NCBI GenBank assembly: GCA_003554345.1
Contig: PWGE01000156.1
Location: 1-7,907 of the forward strand
Direction: 5' to 3'
Source of the DNA: T1SED10-198M sp003554345 [NCBI: Candidatus Sumerlaeota bacterium]
Lineage (GTDB): Bacteria; Sumerlaeota; T1SED10-198M
DNA length: 7,907 nt
Shown here: positions 412 through 5,476 of the stretch, in pieces
Layout of the letters: each line of letters starts with the position of its first letter
How positions within the stretch are numbered: the stretch's first letter is position 1
Notes under the pieces: generated by a model
Databases searched by the model: none
What the model saw: only the letters and a program-made list of their open reading frames with translations
Told to the model about the DNA's origin: nothing
Made by a program: the position numbers and the translations under genes

Positions 412-1851
412 ATGGTACGAGTAAGATTTGCACCCAGCCCTACCGGAAATTTGCATATTGGGGGCGTTCGTACCGCTCTTTTTAACTATCTCTTCGCCAG
501 ATCTCATAAAGGGGCTTTTCTGTTACGTATCGAGGATACGGATCTTGAACGTTCAAAAACAGCATATACTGAGCATATTCTGGAGTCCCTTAAATGGCTC
601 GATATAACGATCGATGAACCGGTAGTTTTTCAATCATGTCGTCAGTCCCTTTATGAACACTATTTTGTTATCTTAAAGAAAAAAGGAGTGGTGTATCCCT
701 GCTTTTGTACTGTTGATGACCTTCAGCAGGAACGCGAAGAAGCCAGAAAACAGGGCGTGCCATACTGCTATTCCGGACGATGTCGGGAGTTACCCTCAGT
801 GGAGGTAGAACAGAAGCTTCAAGCATGCCAATCTCATACCTATCGTTTTTTTAATGAAAAGAATGGGACCGTTAAATGGCAGGATAGAGTCCATGGAATC
901 ATTTCCTTTGACACCTCCCGTCTGGATGATTTTATAATAAGACGTTCCGATGGTTCTTTCACTTATAACTATTGTGTGGTGATTGATGATCTGGATATGG
1001 AAATCACGCATGTGATTCGGGGAGATGATCATATTTCCAATACTCCCCGTCAGATTCTTTTGTTTCAGTCACTTTCTGAAGAACCACCTGCTTATGCCCA
1101 TGTTCCCATGATACTGGGTCCCGACCGTAAAAGACTGAGCAAGAGGCACGGTGCCTGCGGGCTGTTGAACTTCAAGAAGGAAGGGTATTTGAAAGAGGCT
1201 CTTGTTAATTTTTGTGCCCTTATGGGGTGGTCCTGGGACGATAAAACGACCATATTTTCCAGGCAGGAACTGATTGATACATTTACGCTGGATAAAATTT
1301 CATCCAGTCCGGCGGTTTTTGATAAGGATAAGCTCAATTGGTTGAATCGCTATTATCTGCGCAGCCTTTCTCTTTCACAAATAATGCAGGCGTTGGCACC
1401 TTTTTTGCGGGAAGAACAGCAAATGGAGAAAATAAGCCATGATATCCTCCTGGAATTGGTCAAAATAAGCCGGGAAAGAGTGACAACGCTCAAAGAACTG
1501 GCTGAAACTATTGGCAAAATCTGCAGAGGTCCTTCCTGCTATGAAGAGAAAGCGGTTCGGAAATGCCGAAAAAAATTTCTTCGTCCCGGTCTTTTGCCTG
1601 GTCTTATTGCCTTTTTAAACAACTTAAAGGAATGGTCACTGCCTTCTTTTGAAGAAAAACTGCGTGAATGGGCGCAGCAAAATGACTATAAATTTGTAGC
1701 CGTAGCTCAGGTTCTTCGTCTTGCTTTGACAGGAAGTTTGGTCTCTCCGCCTATTATAGAATGTGCTGTCTTTCTGGGTAGGGATACGGTACTTTCCCGC
1801 CTTTCCCACCTGGAACAATATCTCCGTTCCAGCGGGGATTACGAGGGTTGA
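412..1851 (+). CDS. gltX: Glutamyl-tRNA synthetase (class I)
   Basis: This cytoplasmic enzyme charges tRNA-Glu with glutamate using ATP. The 479-residue product is close to the 471 residues of the E. coli enzyme. It shows the N-terminal RFAPSPTG block, the class I HIGG signature (residues 15-18) and LRIEDTD (38-44). A complete zinc-site pattern follows: Cys97, Cys99, Tyr120 and Cys124, matching C98/C100/Y121/C125 of E. coli GluRS. The glutamate-pocket region is intact (TYNYCVVIDD, then RGDDHISNTPRQ), as is the KRLSKRHG form of the KMSKS loop (240-247). The C-terminal third is the helical anticodon-binding part and is less conserved. I cannot tell from sequence alone whether the enzyme is discriminating or also charges tRNA-Gln. 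I start it at 412 rather than 391 because of the Shine-Dalgarno and family alignment. Its TGA shares one base with the next gene's ATG (TGATG), suggesting translational coupling. Confidence 0.96.
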   Translation: MVRVRFAPSPTGNLHIGGVRTALFNYLFARSHKGAFLLRIEDTDLERSKTAYTEHILESLKWLDITIDEPVVFQSCRQSLYEHYFVILKKKGVVYPCFCTVDDLQQEREEARKQGVPYCYSGRCRELPSVEVEQKLQACQSHTYRFFNEKNGTVKWQDRVHGIISFDTSRLDDFIIRRSDGSFTYNYCVVIDDLDMEITHVIRGDDHISNTPRQILLFQSLSEEPPAYAHVPMILGPDRKRLSKRHGACGLLNFKKEGYLKEALVNFCALMGWSWDDKTTIFSRQELIDTFTLDKISSSPAVFDKDKLNWLNRYYLRSLSLSQIMQALAPFLREEQQMEKISHDILLELVKISRERVTTLKELAETIGKICRGPSCYEEKAVRKCRKKFLRPGLLPGLIAFLNNLKEWSLPSFEEKLREWAQQNDYKFVAVAQVLRLALTGSLVSPPIIECAVFLGRDTVLSRLSHLEQYLRSSGDYEG

Positions 1852-3488
1852 TGGGTCTGTTTCATCAGCGTTGTTATGTGCTCACTGTTTTTATTCTCTT
1901 AGTCTGGCTCATATCTTCTCCTTTATCAGGAAATGATTTTGAGCTGGTGTTATCAGTGCAGGATCCTTTTTTCAGGCTCCTGAATGAACAGTGGGAATTT
2001 GCCCGGAGGGGCGGCAGTTATGGTGATTATTATTATCGTTTCCCTTCTGCAGGTACTGGTGATGTAATGGCTCGCTGGTATGTTGATGGTGTTCCTTCGG
2101 GTGAATATGAGCTGGAAACATGGATTGTCCCCGGTAGTTATGCCTCAAAAACTCAATACCGTATCGAAGGTGCTGAGAGTTTGAATGTTGTTGTTTCTGC
2201 TGAAGAAGAAGGGTGGTATTCACTGGGGAAATTTCAGGTGGAAGATTATTTGAGGGTGTCGATTGTTGACAAATGGGAGCAGCGGCATATGGTACATGCC
2301 GATGCCCTGAGAATGCAACTCAACAGTGAGCCTCCTCCTCCGCCTGTTGCTGATCCGCCACCTCTGTTGGGATTGTGTATTGATGATGTGGGAATGCAGA
2401 GTCCGCAGAATGAAAACAGTATTGTTTATGGTTTTACCCGATTACCGGTCTCTCTGACGTATGCCGTTCTTCCCCATGCGGTTTTTGCCAGGGAAAGCGC
2501 CCGGTATCTTACCGGAAAGGGATCTGAAGTGATTGTTCATCAGCCTATGGAACCTATTTCGTCGTTCTTTGAAGATTATGACCATCTTATTACCACTACT
2601 CAGGATAAAGAGGAAATATATGATATCCTTCGAACTTCTTTTGAAAATGTGCCTGGTGCTTTTGGTCTGAATAATCATATGGGCTCTCTGGTTACCCAGG
2701 ACCGACGAGTCATGAAAACGATCCTGGGTTATCTGCAAGAAAATGAGGGGTTTTTCCTGGATAGTTATACTATCGCTCACAGTCGGGCATTTGCATTAGC
2801 CCGGCAAAAAGGAGTGCTCACCGGGAAGCGTCATTACTTTATTGATGGAGAAACGGTCCAGGAAAGTCGCACTCATATGAGAAGATGGGCAGACCAGGTA
2901 TTATATAATCCGGGGCGCCCTCTTAATGCTATTGGACACGTGCAGCAGAATACCCTGCAAGCCCTGGAGGAAAAAATACCTCTTTTGATAGAGAGGGGAA
3001 TCCAGGTGCAGCCTGTTTCATCCACCATGCATTTGACCTTTTATCCAGATGAAAATACTCCGGTATCGTCTTTTCGCAGTGTTCAGCCGTTTCAATGGGG
3101 GGCTCAGGAAGAATGTTTTTTTACTTCTGCCACCAGGCGGGCGGCACTGTGGGAGCTGAAAGATGATAAAGAGCCTCCTCTCCTGGGAGAAATGAACATA
3201 CTGGCACCCTGTACCGGGAAGTATCGCCTCTGGGTATACTGGGATGAGAAGGAAAAAGAACTGTCGTCCTCTCGAATGGAAGTGGTTACTCCTGCCGGTG
3301 GTCGTTCGGTGCCTCTTTGTCAGAAAAAGGGGAATCGTCAGTGGATACCCCTGGGACATTACAATGTAAAACAGGGGGAACTGCTTCAGCTCCGGATTCT
3401 GGCGCCTCCTGCCCCTTTATCTGATTCTTTTATCCGCCTGGATGCCGTTCGTTTACAATACCTGGGAGAAGAAAGAAATGAGGAGTAA
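1851..3488 (+). CDS. Exported YibQ-type divergent polysaccharide deacetylase flanked by two golvesin-like domains
   Basis: The 545-residue product has an N-terminal export signal (about 1-27: short basic start, hydrophobic VLTVFILLVWLISS), so it should act in the periplasm or outside the cell. Residues about 31-157 form a beta-rich module ending in HADALRM that resembles the golvesin C-terminal-like domain. A proline-rich linker (161-171, with PPPPP) follows. Residues about 172-393 are the divergent polysaccharide deacetylase fold (Polysacc_deac_2/YibQ family): CIDDVG (Asp178, Asp179), VIVHQPMEP (His230), GLNNHMGS (His276), FFLDSYT (Asp304) and AIGHVQ (His363). Residues about 410-537 look like a second copy of the first module (TGKYRLWVYW... 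WIPLGHYNV... RLDAVRL). The family is thought to act on polysaccharide or peptidoglycan, but its substrate is not established. I chose ATG 1851 (GAGGG at 1843-1847) over the TTG at 1848. The gene is close behind gltX, but no functional link is apparent. Confidence 0.85.
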   Translation: MGLFHQRCYVLTVFILLVWLISSPLSGNDFELVLSVQDPFFRLLNEQWEFARRGGSYGDYYYRFPSAGTGDVMARWYVDGVPSGEYELETWIVPGSYASKTQYRIEGAESLNVVVSAEEEGWYSLGKFQVEDYLRVSIVDKWEQRHMVHADALRMQLNSEPPPPPVADPPPLLGLCIDDVGMQSPQNENSIVYGFTRLPVSLTYAVLPHAVFARESARYLTGKGSEVIVHQPMEPISSFFEDYDHLITTTQDKEEIYDILRTSFENVPGAFGLNNHMGSLVTQDRRVMKTILGYLQENEGFFLDSYTIAHSRAFALARQKGVLTGKRHYFIDGETVQESRTHMRRWADQVLYNPGRPLNAIGHVQQNTLQALEEKIPLLIERGIQVQPVSSTMHLTFYPDENTPVSSFRSVQPFQWGAQEECFFTSATRRAALWELKDDKEPPLLGEMNILAPCTGKYRLWVYWDEKEKELSSSRMEVVTPAGGRSVPLCQKKGNRQWIPLGHYNVKQGELLQLRILAPPAPLSDSFIRLDAVRLQYLGEERNEE

Positions 3489-3497
3489 ATATTGCTG

Positions 3498-3535
3498 AAA
3501 ACCCCATTTCTGTGCAGTGAATCAGCGGGTGTTTT
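3498..3535 (+). terminator. Weak hairpin after the deacetylase gene, possible terminator
   Basis: AAAAC-CCC (3498-3505) can pair with GGG-T-GTTTT (3527-3535), with a bulged T at 3530 and a 21-nt loop. The GTTTT is part of the stem rather than a clean U-tract after it, and the structure runs into the -35 box of the next promoter. It is a poor intrinsic terminator at best and may be chance. Confidence 0.2.
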
Positions 3536-3561
3536 GAAAATATATAGAAGTGTGGTAAAAT
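3534..3561 (+). promoter_or_regulatory. Sigma70-type promoter with extended -10, upstream of the ABC exporter operon
   Basis: TTGAAA (3534-3539, five of six matches to TTGACA) is followed after 16 bp by TAAAAT (3556-3561, five of six matches to TATAAT). TGG immediately precedes the -10, giving the TGn extended -10 motif. This is the only sizeable gap on the strand and sits just before a four-gene run, the expected position. The predicted start point is about 3567-3569, at the first bases of the hairpin described next. The match is by eye to the E. coli consensus, so the sigma specificity in this organism is inferred. Confidence 0.6.
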
Positions 3562-3562
3562 C

Positions 3563-3599
3563 CCTCTTCATCTCTTCTGAAGAAGAGATGTAGGAGAGG
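3563..3599 (+). promoter_or_regulatory. Leader hairpin 1 at the predicted 5' end of the ABC exporter mRNA
   Basis: CATCTCTTC (3569-3577) and GAAGAGATG (3582-3590) are perfect complements around a TGAA loop. An outer stem, CCTCT (3563-3567) with AGAGG (3595-3599), can add five pairs across an internal loop. No T-run follows, so it is not an intrinsic terminator. If transcription starts near 3568, the inner stem forms the very 5' end of the mRNA, which in known cases such as ompA protects against decay. The DNA could also be an operator, since the repeat is a symmetric dyad just after the -10. Confidence 0.55.
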
Positions 3600-3623
3600 C
3601 CGGAAAAAGCAATAACCCGGCTT
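3592..3623 (+). promoter_or_regulatory. Shine-Dalgarno-like AGGAG plus leader hairpin 2 before the ABC exporter start
   Basis: AGGAG (3592-3596) is the only good ribosome-binding sequence before the ABC exporter gene, but it is 38 nt from the ATG at 3635, too far in linear form. A hairpin fills the space: AGGCCGG (3597-3603) pairs with CCGGCTT (3617-3623), seven pairs including one G-U, with a 13-nt loop. Looping it out puts AGGAG directly beside ATG 3624 and 11 nt from ATG 3635. Bases 3597-3599 are also used by the outer stem of hairpin 1, so the two pairings are mutually exclusive. The pairing is read directly; its regulatory role is inference. Confidence 0.4.
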
Positions 3624-3634
3624 ATGAAATATAT

Positions 3635-5476
3635 ATGACAACAATTCGCTTTCTTTATACTTATATCAGGAAATACTTTCGCCTCTTTATTCTGGCGGCT
3701 TTCCTGGCTATCCTGGTGAGTGCTCTGTCTATAGGTTCTTTTGGTGCTATAGTGCCTACATTGAATATACTTTTTGATCCCTATATAGCAGAAGATGGGA
3801 CCCAGGAATTTATTCGTATACCGGAGGAGGTGCCGGGGGGTATTCGTGAAAAAGTTGAGGGTCCGGTGCAGTCCCTTAATGAAAATTTTCAGGGACGGCA
3901 TTATGATCTGCTCATTATGGTGATGGTCTTTTTTATTGTCATTAATTTTTTTAAATGCTTCTGCATGTTTCTCAAAAAGTATCTGCAGGCTTATATTGGA
4001 AACAAAATCGTACAGTCCATACGAAATGATCTCTATCGGCGAATTTTAACCCTGGATTTTTATTTTTTCGGCCGATTTAAAAGTGGTGACCTGATGAGTC
4101 GTCTCCTCGATGATACCGGGCGTGTGCAGAAAAGCGTTACCAGGGAAGTAATGAACCTGCTCTCTGCTCCTATTGATATTATTGTAAAAATGGTGACCCT
4201 TTTTCTTATAGCACCGGTGCTCTCGATATTTGTTTTCTGTGTCTATCCCTTTATAGCAGTTCCTATAGTTATTTTTGGCAGAAAAATCAAGAAGTATTCC
4301 AGGCGTGCCATGAAAAAGACAGCTGATTTAAACAGTATTATAAAAGAAACTATTTCCGGGATAGAGATTGTGCAGGCTTTTAATATGACTGATTATGAGC
4401 ACGCACGCTTTGAGAAGAAAAATCACCGCCTGGTATATTTGAGGTTAAAAAATTCAATTATGTCGGCGGTTTCCCGTCCTATTTTAGAATTTTGTGTAAA
4501 CATTGGAATTTCTATCATTGTTTTATGGGGTGGTTATCTGGTCTTAAAACGGGGAACCCTTCAGTCGGATATTTTTATCTTCTATCTGGGAATACTGGCT
4601 TCTATGTACCGACCTGTAAAAGATATATTAAGGGCTAATAACCAGTTGCAGGAAGGAATGGCTTCAGCGGACAGGGTGTTTCAGATTATGAATGAGCAAA
4701 ATCAGGTGGTGGAAAGGGAGGACGCTAAGAAACTTGACAGGGTGGAAAAAGGACTGGTTTTTGACAATGTATCTTTTGAGTATAATACTGAAGAACCTGT
4801 TTTGTGTAATATCGATCTGGAAGTTCCCCTCAACAAATGTGTCGCTATTGTTGGACCCAGCGGAGCCGGTAAAACTACCCTGGTGCATCTTGTTCCCCGC
4901 TTCATTGAACCCTCTTCCGGACGTGTATTGATTGATGGAGAAGATTATAAAAATTATACTATTGAATCTATCCGAGCCCAGATAGGAATTGTCATGCAGG
5001 ATGTTTTTCTTTTTGATGATACCATTCGCAATAATATTGCTTATGGTCATCCTGAAATCGAACTGGAGCGGGTCATAGAAGCGGCAAAACATGCCAATGC
5101 TCATGATTTTATCATGAATTTGCCCGGGCAATATGATACCATGATTGGTGAACTGGGAGATACTCTCTCTGGCGGTGAAAAACAGCGCCTCTCCATCGCA
5201 AGGGCTATTCTTAAAAACCCTTCTATTTTGCTGTTGGATGAAGCGACCTCTTCTTTAGATTCTGAAGCAGAAGCCCTGGTGCAGCAAGCTCTGGACTACC
5301 TTATGAAAGACCGGTCAACTTTTATTATCGCTCATCGACTTTCAACTGTGAAAAATGCCGATGAAATCATATTCCTGAAAGACGGTTGTGTGTGCGAACG
5401 GGGAACTCATGAAGAATTAATTGAGAAAAATGGATATTATGCACAGTTTTTCCGTACCCAATTTTTAACTCCCTGA
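3635..5476 (+). CDS. MsbA-type ABC exporter (fused permease and ATPase)
   Basis: The 613-residue inner-membrane half-transporter should work as a homodimer. The membrane domain spans about 1-335, with likely helices near 16-40, 92-113, 178-197, 198-216, 286-304 and 311-326. The ATPase domain has all key motifs: A-loop Tyr383, Walker A GPSGAGKTT (407-415), Q-loop Gln455, signature LSGGEKQ (511-517), Walker B ILLLDE (531-536), D-loop SSLD (539-542) and H-loop His567. The family includes MsbA, which flips lipid A-core, and multidrug or polysaccharide-linked exporters. The Kdo-kinase-like gene 7 nt downstream favours a lipid A/LPS substrate. The loop between helices 1 and 2 (about 43-91) is longer than in E. 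coli MsbA (582 residues). No in-frame start exists just upstream, so ATG 3635 is chosen despite lacking an adjacent Shine-Dalgarno. It is the first gene of the operon. Family is certain; substrate is inferred. Confidence 0.92.
   Translation: MTTIRFLYTYIRKYFRLFILAAFLAILVSALSIGSFGAIVPTLNILFDPYIAEDGTQEFIRIPEEVPGGIREKVEGPVQSLNENFQGRHYDLLIMVMVFFIVINFFKCFCMFLKKYLQAYIGNKIVQSIRNDLYRRILTLDFYFFGRFKSGDLMSRLLDDTGRVQKSVTREVMNLLSAPIDIIVKMVTLFLIAPVLSIFVFCVYPFIAVPIVIFGRKIKKYSRRAMKKTADLNSIIKETISGIEIVQAFNMTDYEHARFEKKNHRLVYLRLKNSIMSAVSRPILEFCVNIGISIIVLWGGYLVLKRGTLQSDIFIFYLGILASMYRPVKDILRANNQLQEGMASADRVFQIMNEQNQVVEREDAKKLDRVEKGLVFDNVSFEYNTEEPVLCNIDLEVPLNKCVAIVGPSGAGKTTLVHLVPRFIEPSSGRVLIDGEDYKNYTIESIRAQIGIVMQDVFLFDDTIRNNIAYGHPEIELERVIEAAKHANAHDFIMNLPGQYDTMIGELGDTLSGGEKQRLSIARAILKNPSILLLDEATSSLDSEAEALVQQALDYLMKDRSTFIIAHRLSTVKNADEIIFLKDGCVCERGTHEELIEKNGYYAQFFRTQFLTP

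What the first reader, a model, noticed from the sequence alone, without database searches (positions are those of the whole stretch)
3592..3638. A hairpin seems to bridge the Shine-Dalgarno and start codon of the ABC exporter gene
The ABC exporter ATG (3635) has no Shine-Dalgarno at normal spacing. The only good one, AGGAG at 3592-3596, is followed immediately by a 7-bp hairpin (3597-3623) whose last base abuts ATG 3624. Removing the hairpin puts AGGAG next to ATG 3624 and 11 nt from ATG 3635. Structure-mediated shortening of a Shine-Dalgarno spacer is known (phage T4 gene 38), but I know of no such case for an msbA-type gene. The flush fit on both sides is suggestive.
Basis: partly seen in the sequence, partly recalled or inferred. 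Interest (0 to 1): 0.6.

Follow-up and report, generated by a model that had tools for sequence, protein, structure and literature searches.

The report
Two-hairpin leader before an ABC exporter
The mRNA leader of a bacterial membrane-exporter gene folds into two hairpins around a ribosome-binding motif; the hairpin that was flagged is no rarer than chance, while a stronger one beside it could hide the motif in long transcripts and show it in short ones, which is a testable but unproven switch.

Summary
In detail: AGGAG 3592-3596, a 7-pair hairpin 3597-3623 (H2) and ATG 3635 lie as described, and ATG 3635 has no Shine-Dalgarno (SD) core at normal spacing. The bridging interpretation is not established. 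H2 alone is ordinary (z -1.8). Comparable 'SD-hairpin-start' arrangements occur at 6 of 485 first-ATG starts (this one included) and 21 of 2654 internal ATGs in a 776-kb sample of the genome. Starts without a close SD are common there (276 of 485). Covariation cannot be tested: no other genome of the class was returned.

Read-through RNA hides AGGAG (free probability at most 0.0023). An extended -10 promoter (3534-3561) would start RNA near 3567-3570 and cut off the pairing arm; AGGAG is then free with probability 0.03-0.84, depending on where the folded RNA is ended. Most likely this is a promoter-driven structured leader with SD-independent initiation at a locally open AUG; the bridge is a minority possibility. 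A read-through gate as in phage T4 gene e, joined to a gene-25-like split ribosome-binding site, is the boldest reading left.

The parts
3534..3561 (+). predicted promoter: TTGAAA, 16-nt spacer, TAAAAT preceded by TGG (extended -10)
   Evidence: 10 of 12, TG before the -10. In the genome sample, promoters of this grade lie in the 150 nt upstream of 13 of 477 first-ATG starts (this one included) and at +150..+300 inside 0 of 477 (p 0.0002); base composition of the two regions was not matched
3567..3570 (+). inferred transcription start; A3570 is the first purine after the -10
   Evidence: inference from the position of the -10; not measured
3564..3596 (+). hairpin H1: 9-bp perfect inverted repeat CATCTCTTC-TGAA-GAAGAGATG plus a 5-pair extension (bulged T3591, one G-U) that pairs AGGAG with 3564-3568
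   Evidence: -16.7 kcal/mol, z -3.60, 0 of 200 shuffles
3592..3596 (+). AGGAG, Shine-Dalgarno-like motif
   Evidence: probability of being fully free 0.0023 or less if RNA starts at 3489, 3540 or 3563; 0.03-0.84 if it starts at 3567-3570, over six 3' ends
   Evidence: -9.4 kcal/mol, z -1.83, 9 of 200 shuffles as good; G-C core 0.65-0.99 over 60 combinations of RNA ends
3624..3638 (+). 4-codon frame ATG AAA TAT ATA TGA whose stop overlaps ATG 3635
   Evidence: stop-overlapping stretches of 2-10 codons after an ATG also stand at 20 of 259 starts, ends of longer frames included, so weak evidence
3609..3668 (+). locally unfolded pocket around the start codon
   Evidence: 40-nt windows 3609-3648, 3619-3658 and 3629-3668 have MFE 0.0; -20..+20 MFE 0.0, reached by 6% of 259 starts. 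In longer RNA the start codon is predicted free with probability 0.00-0.85, and 0.00-0.17 when the RNA runs to 3760
3635..5476 (+). MsbA-type ABC exporter, 613 aa, start ATG 3635
   Evidence: PF00664 and PF00005; best NCBIfam TIGR02203 MsbA at 482 bits, under its 602-bit cut-off; in 8 of 108 relatives the alignment begins at residue 1 exactly on a start codon

Best explanation
The msbA-type gene has its own promoter (3534-3561) and a 5' leader of about 65 nt with two hairpins. Translation starts at AUG 3635 mainly because the A/U-rich stretch around it has no local structure (SD-independent initiation). The hairpins are general leader structure, for example an end-protecting 5' hairpin and a ribosome landing platform, and the flush position of H2 is incidental. 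Shown by computation: the local folds, the lack of a close SD core, the locally open start region, and the enrichment of such promoters before genes. Inferred: the transcription start, that initiation needs no SD, and the role of the hairpins.
For: No GGAG, GAGG or AGGA core at 4-14 nt from ATG 3635, as at 276 of 485 first-ATG starts in the genome sample. Start region -20..+20 has MFE 0.0, 6% of 259 starts so open. Start regions in this genome are less folded than internal ATG regions with or without an SD (medians -3.0, -3.6, -4.85 kcal/mol). Scharff et al. state that local absence of structure is necessary and sufficient for SD-independent initiation (PMC3121790, abstract read). Bridge-like arrangements are at background frequency. 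78 of 276 SD-less starts also have an SD core 18-60 nt upstream, 17 of 276 AGGAG or GGAGG.
Against: In longer RNA the AUG is not reliably open: free with probability 0.41-0.54 for RNA from 3563-3570 to 3665, 3680 or 3700, and 0.00-0.17 for RNA to 3760. The leader is unusually structured (z -4.5, rank 2 of 259) and has no U-tract, unlike two of the other top leaders, which look like terminators (L137, L152), so it may have a dedicated role. In this genome SD-less starts are not more open than SD starts (p 0.21), so openness is not shown to be the rule there. The count of SD-less starts is inflated by wrongly chosen first ATGs. Just upstream of AUG 3635 there is no pairing to the anti-SD (+0.4 kcal/mol), against -5.7 to -7.3 for AGGAG with its neighbours, so using the AGGAG would pay if the ribosome can.
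Confidence: 0.45

Rival explanations
1. Split ribosome-binding site: in RNA made from the local promoter, AGGAG binds the 16S tail while H2 stays folded and shortens the spacing to AUG 3635 from 38 to 11 nt, as in phage T4 gene 25 (27 to 11) and gene 38 (22 to 5).
For: Geometry exact; bridge-competent state 0.46-0.71 for RNA 3567-3570 to 3650 and 0.19-0.25 to 3680 or 3700; AGGAG-anti-SD pairing -5.7 to -7.3 kcal/mol; 1 of 3000 shuffles as good and exactly flush, 9 of 3000 within 2 nt; the precedent has the same final spacing of 11 nt.
Against: 6 of 485 starts against 21 of 2654 internal ATGs, p 0.23; H2 z only -1.83; the same state falls to 0.02-0.07 for RNA to 3665 or 3720 and 0.00 for RNA to 3760; the outer two pairs, which make the fit flush, are the weak ones (all seven formed in 0.19-0.80 for these 5' ends); spacing 11 carries 7.7% of SD cores, the peak is 7-8; 4 of 108 relatives have any such arrangement, at one of their candidate starts; 27-nt hairpin, larger than the 16-17 nt that the T4 spacing figures imply.
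Confidence: 0.22
2. Read-through gate: in transcripts that come from the upstream genes, H1 locks AGGAG up and lowers translation of the exporter; the local promoter starts RNA inside the 5' arm of H1 and so frees AGGAG. The logic is that of T4 gene e (lysozyme). It needs the AGGAG to be used, so it contains the previous rival.
For: P(AGGAG free) at most 0.0023 for 5' ends 3489, 3540 and 3563, at most 0.0035 for 3564-3565 and 0.028 for 3566, against 0.03-0.84 for 3567-3570: a step where the promoter points. H1 z -3.60, 0 of 200; the promoter grade is found upstream of 13 of 477 starts and inside 0 of 477; T4 gene e precedent.
Against: For RNA to 3720, AGGAG stays mostly paired even in the short form (free 0.03). 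26 of 3000 shuffles of 3541-3591 reach the H1 energy and 528 of 3000 pair all of AGGAG by chance. Transcription start and read-through unmeasured; a start only 1-2 nt earlier than 3567 would keep AGGAG hidden. If AUG 3635 does not use AGGAG the gate does nothing.
Confidence: 0.13
3. H1 is a DNA operator: the 9-bp inverted repeat at about +1 to +22 binds a repressor, and the RNA folds are by-products.
For: Perfect 9-bp inverted repeat just after the -10. Over the genome, with up to 3 mismatches, the repeat pattern is found at 40 places and its backwards-read control at 13.
Against: No second exact copy in the genome. Of the 39 other partial copies I examined 18; 17 lie in stop-free frames of at least 60 codons and one in a frame of 34, though that is a weak test, since the leader copy itself lies in a stop-free frame of 220 codons; codon usage alone may explain the excess over the control (inference). 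The repeat continues as imperfect RNA pairing (bulge, G-U) into the AGGAG.
Confidence: 0.1
4. Coupling through the mini-frame ATG 3624-TGA 3638: ribosomes that start at 3624 stop on top of ATG 3635 and restart there.
For: ATGA overlap.
Against: ATG 3624 has no SD at normal spacing either and zero spacing to AGGAG when H2 is folded; stop-overlapping stretches of this kind occur at 20 of 259 starts.
Confidence: 0.05

Closest known systems
Phage T4 gene 25 and gene 38 split ribosome-binding sites (Nivinskas et al. 1999, Malys and Nivinskas 2009, both only as reviewed in PMC3014915, whose section 29 was read)
   Same: SD far from AUG with a hairpin between; gene 25 goes from 27 to 11 nt, here 38 to 11 nt
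   Different: There mutations, DMS probing and a conserved stem in about 30 phages support it; here there is prediction only, a larger hairpin, no conservation data, and a competing hairpin H1
Phage T4 gene e (lysozyme) leader (PMC3014915, section 29 read)
   Same: Long transcripts hide the ribosome-binding site in a hairpin; [quoted passage not shown]
   Different: T4 uses late-phage promoters; here the promoter looks sigma-70-like and the SD lies 38 nt from the start codon
E. coli thrS split ribosome-binding site (Sacerdot et al., only as cited in a passage of PMC3936740)
   Same: A cellular gene whose ribosome-binding region accommodates a long hairpin without unfolding it
   Different: In thrS, from recall, SD and AUG are adjacent and the hairpin separates them from an upstream single-stranded landing site
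SD-independent initiation at unstructured start codons (Scharff et al. 2011, PMC3121790, abstract read)
   Same: No SD, locally unfolded AUG region
   Different: Here an unusually structured leader sits directly upstream, and longer RNA can pair the AUG

Membership tests
T4 gene 25/38-type split ribosome-binding site | SD motif too far from AUG, with a stable hairpin between that restores usable spacing | tested here: met
   38 nt reduced to 11 nt; -9.4 kcal/mol, core probability 0.65-0.99
T4 gene 25/38-type split ribosome-binding site | SD, hairpin and AUG in the needed state at once | tested here: inconclusive
   predicted probability 0.00-0.71 for RNA from 3567-3570, depending on the 3' end taken
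T4 gene 25/38-type split ribosome-binding site | arrangement beyond background in the genome (my own criterion, not one of the literature) | tested here: not met
   6 of 485 starts against 21 of 2654 internal ATGs, p 0.23
T4 gene 25/38-type split ribosome-binding site | stem conserved or covarying in close relatives | not testable with these tools
   no other genome of the class returned; leader DNA found in 1 of 40 genomes of the phylum, its own
T4 gene 25/38-type split ribosome-binding site | breaking the stem lowers translation | not testable with these tools
   needs a reporter
T4 gene e-type promoter-inside-stem gate | ribosome-binding motif hidden in long RNA and free in promoter-made RNA | tested here: inconclusive
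   hidden in long RNA (free 0.0023 or less); in RNA from 3567-3570 free 0.03-0.84 over six 3' ends; prediction only
T4 gene e-type promoter-inside-stem gate | mapped transcript start that removes the 5' strand of the structure | not testable with these tools
   only a predicted promoter
SD-independent open-AUG start | no SD core at usable linear distance | tested here: met
SD-independent open-AUG start | start region unfolded | tested here: inconclusive
   locally yes: MFE 0.0 for -20..+20, 6% of 259 starts as open; in longer RNA the AUG is free with 0.00-0.85
known Rfam leader or riboswitch | match at gathering score | tested here: not met
   0 matches in the window
MsbA lipid A exporter (TIGR02203) | score above the curated cut-off | tested here: not met
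   482 bits, cut-off 602; an MsbA-type exporter, not a certified MsbA

The most novel reading that the evidence does not exclude
A cellular gene combines two devices known from phage T4: a promoter placed at the 5' arm of a hairpin, so that read-through RNA hides the SD and promoter-made RNA shows it (gene e logic), and a second hairpin that bridges the exposed SD to a start codon 38 nt away (gene 25 logic). Translation of the exporter would then depend on which promoter made the RNA.
Probability: 0.1. Interest if true: 0.6.

Novelty: new member of a known kind. Interest (0 to 1): 0.25.

Why it matters
If the bridge works, it would be a cellular gene with a T4 gene 25-type split ribosome-binding site, at a membrane-exporter gene, with a built-in filter against read-through transcripts. 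If not, it is a caution: a near-flush SD-hairpin-AUG fit turned up at about one in a hundred first-ATG starts of this genome (6 of 485) and hardly less often at internal ATGs (21 of 2654).

Tried and rejected
Covariation in relatives: no other genome of the class was returned, leader DNA matched only its own genome among 40 of the phylum, and none of 109 relative loci carries the neighbouring genes at tblastn E 1e-5, apart from a weak rsmB match in two (flanks were up to 1.5 kb for 29 of them and up to 5 kb for 80). Viral contigs gave no relative. Rfam gave nothing at gathering score. The genome's own anti-SD could not be read: no 16S was found in the assembly; SD use was instead read from motif enrichment. 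Terminator: neither H1 nor H2 is followed by a T-tract, and the scan found no terminator on the + strand at 3300-3900. Upstream in-frame start: the frame is open to a TGA at 3578 but holds no ATG, GTG or TTG before 3635. Operator regulon for the H1 repeat: 18 of 39 other partial copies examined, 17 of them in stop-free frames of 60 codons or more. My first relatives' leader count (92 loci tested, 1 bridge) left out loci held on the minus strand; the corrected count is 108 tested of 109 (L026 had no usable start) with 4 bridged at some candidate start. My first fold table used mostly one 3' end, 3680; the wider table (10 starts by 6 ends) shows that the free-AGGAG, bridge and free-AUG probabilities depend strongly on the 3' end, and the report uses that.

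Full report
What is there. The window is a whole 7907-base contig of a 454-contig, 87.66%-complete assembly. Genes on the + strand, in order: an open frame at the contig edge (not named), gltX, a divergent polysaccharide deacetylase with a Golvesin domain, the ABC exporter, a small protein with a weak protein-kinase match (19.9 bits, under the Pfam cut-off), an rsmB/F-type methyltransferase and the start of panB. The exporter has PF00664 and PF00005 and scores 482 bits to the MsbA model, under its cut-off of 602. Its start at 3635 is supported by relatives: in 8 of 108 the alignment starts at residue 1 exactly on a start codon. The frame is open upstream to TGA 3578 but has no other ATG, GTG or TTG.

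AGGAG 3592-3596 is followed at once by AGGCCGG-13 nt-CCGGCTT (H2), then ATG 3624, then ATG 3635. Over 10 RNA starts and 6 RNA ends the inner five G-C pairs form with 0.65-0.99 and all seven pairs with 0.19-0.81; the outer A-U and G-U pairs are the weak ones. H2 alone is not remarkable: -9.4 kcal/mol, z -1.83, 9 of 200 shuffles as stable.

AGGAG is also the 3' end of a stronger hairpin H1, 3564-3596: a perfect 9-bp inverted repeat with a UGAA loop, extended by five pairs (one G-U, after a one-base bulge) that take up AGGAG: -16.7 kcal/mol, z -3.60, 0 of 200 shuffles. A harsher control that shuffles 3541-3591 and keeps AGGAG reaches that energy in 26 of 3000, and pairs all of AGGAG in 528 of 3000. 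The 98-nt region 3563-3660 has z -4.5, second of 259 start regions sampled. Of the next most structured ones that I looked at, L137 and L152 hold apparent terminators with T-tracts; this leader has none.

The promoter matters. TTGAAA-16-TAAAAT with TG before the -10 (3534-3561) scores 10 of 12. The simple scan finds about as many by chance at its loose threshold (1 found, 1.2 expected), but sites of this grade with the TG lie in the 150 nt upstream of 13 of 477 first-ATG starts, this one included, and at +150..+300 inside 0 of 477 (p 0.0002). The two regions were not matched for base composition. The -10 implies a start near 3568; A3570 is the first purine. In RNA from 3489, 3540 or 3563 the probability that AGGAG is fully unpaired is at most 0.0023; from 3564-3566 at most 0.028; from 3567-3570 it is 0.54-0.84 for RNA to 3650, 0.35-0.48 to 3680 or 3700, 0.07-0.17 to 3665, 0.03 to 3720, and 0.03-0.42 to 3760. 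So transcripts that read through from upstream genes would hide the motif in every case tried, and promoter-made transcripts would show it to a degree that prediction cannot fix. Neither start nor read-through is measured.

Is the bridge more than chance? With AGGAG held and 3597-3634 shuffled, a hairpin as stable at usable spacing is exactly flush in 1 of 3000 and within 2 nt in 9 of 3000; one of -6 kcal/mol or better within 2 nt in 27 of 3000. But one must count the places where it could have been noticed. In 100 sampled contigs and the window (776,233 bases), 6 of 485 first-ATG starts, this one included, show such an arrangement (SD core 18 nt or more away, hairpin of 6 or more pairs within 2 nt, spacing 4-13 nt without it), and 21 of 2654 internal ATGs do (p 0.23). 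A scan over random ATGs of the first part of the sample gave 56 of 7605, and over 93 starts bounded by a near upstream stop gave 1, this one. Of the five other start cases, three look to me like terminators before a T-tract (L112, L203, L210). So the device is not enriched in this genome, and this case is within what the background gives.

Is a bridge needed? 276 of 485 first-ATG starts have no GGAG, GAGG or AGGA at 4-14 nt; this overstates the true share, because first ATGs are not always starts. The SD is nevertheless real in this genome: the cores peak at 7-8 nt from the start and are rare there before internal ATGs. Spacing 11 carries 7.7% of the cores found in the 4-14 nt range. The start region of the exporter has no local structure: MFE 0.0 for -20..+20, reached by 6% of 259 starts, and for the 40-nt windows that cover 3609-3668. 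That fits SD-independent initiation as described by Scharff et al. (PMC3121790, abstract). Against it: in this genome starts with and without SD do not differ in openness (p 0.21), both being more open than internal ATGs, and in longer RNA AUG 3635 is predicted free with 0.41-0.54 for RNA from 3563-3570 to 3665, 3680 or 3700 and with only 0.00-0.17 for RNA to 3760.

Relatives. No other genome of the class was returned; the leader DNA matches 1 of 40 genomes of the phylum, its own. Among 109 relative loci (33-47% identity in the rows listed), 108 had a usable start; 39 have an SD at some candidate start and 4 (L005, L010, L024, L028) a bridge-like arrangement at some candidate start. Many come from other phyla, and Bacteroidetes among them generally lack SDs (PMC3155529 and PMC6847099, starts of abstracts in the search listing). 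Absence there says little about a recent device: the T4 gene 25 arrangement is itself found in the close T-even phages and not in more distant ones (PMC3014915, section 29).

Known parallels. T4 genes 38 (22 to 5 nt) and 25 (27 to 11 nt) have structures that shorten SD spacing, with mutational support; T4 gene e has a hairpin that silences long transcripts and late promoters whose transcripts lack its 5' portion (PMC3014915, section 29). E. coli thrS has a split site with an unopened hairpin (PMC3936740, passage). The six paper searches that ran listed no msbA case of this kind; none of the ten papers shown contained msbA. That is not proof of absence.

Verdict. The bridge is possible and testable but has no support beyond geometry, a fold that depends on the RNA's end, and background-level odds. 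The more notable feature is H1 with the promoter at its 5' arm. I hold SD-independent initiation at a locally open AUG behind a structured leader as most likely (0.45), the bridge alone at 0.22, and the read-through gate (which includes the bridge) at 0.13.

Noticed in passing
window 3564-3596: Strong hairpin whose 3' strand is the AGGAG itself, with a 9-bp perfect inverted repeat just after a predicted extended -10 promoter; the start region is the second most structured of 259 sampled.
   Followed up: yes
window 3588-3593: ATGTAG, a start codon followed at once by a stop, at the 3' arm of H1.
   Followed up: no
window 1751-1876: Another strongly folded start region (z -3.7, rank 6 of 259), at the deacetylase start and the end of gltX.
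   Followed up: no
L177 (G000:C86:2-118): A second gltX N-terminal fragment, 82% identical over 39 residues, at a contig edge of the same assembly; either a second gltX or strain mixing in the bin.
   Followed up: no
L121 minus strand 466; L174 plus strand 1542: Other extended -10 promoters upstream of SD-less first ATGs in the same genome, with 82 and 74 nt between -10 and ATG.
   Followed up: no
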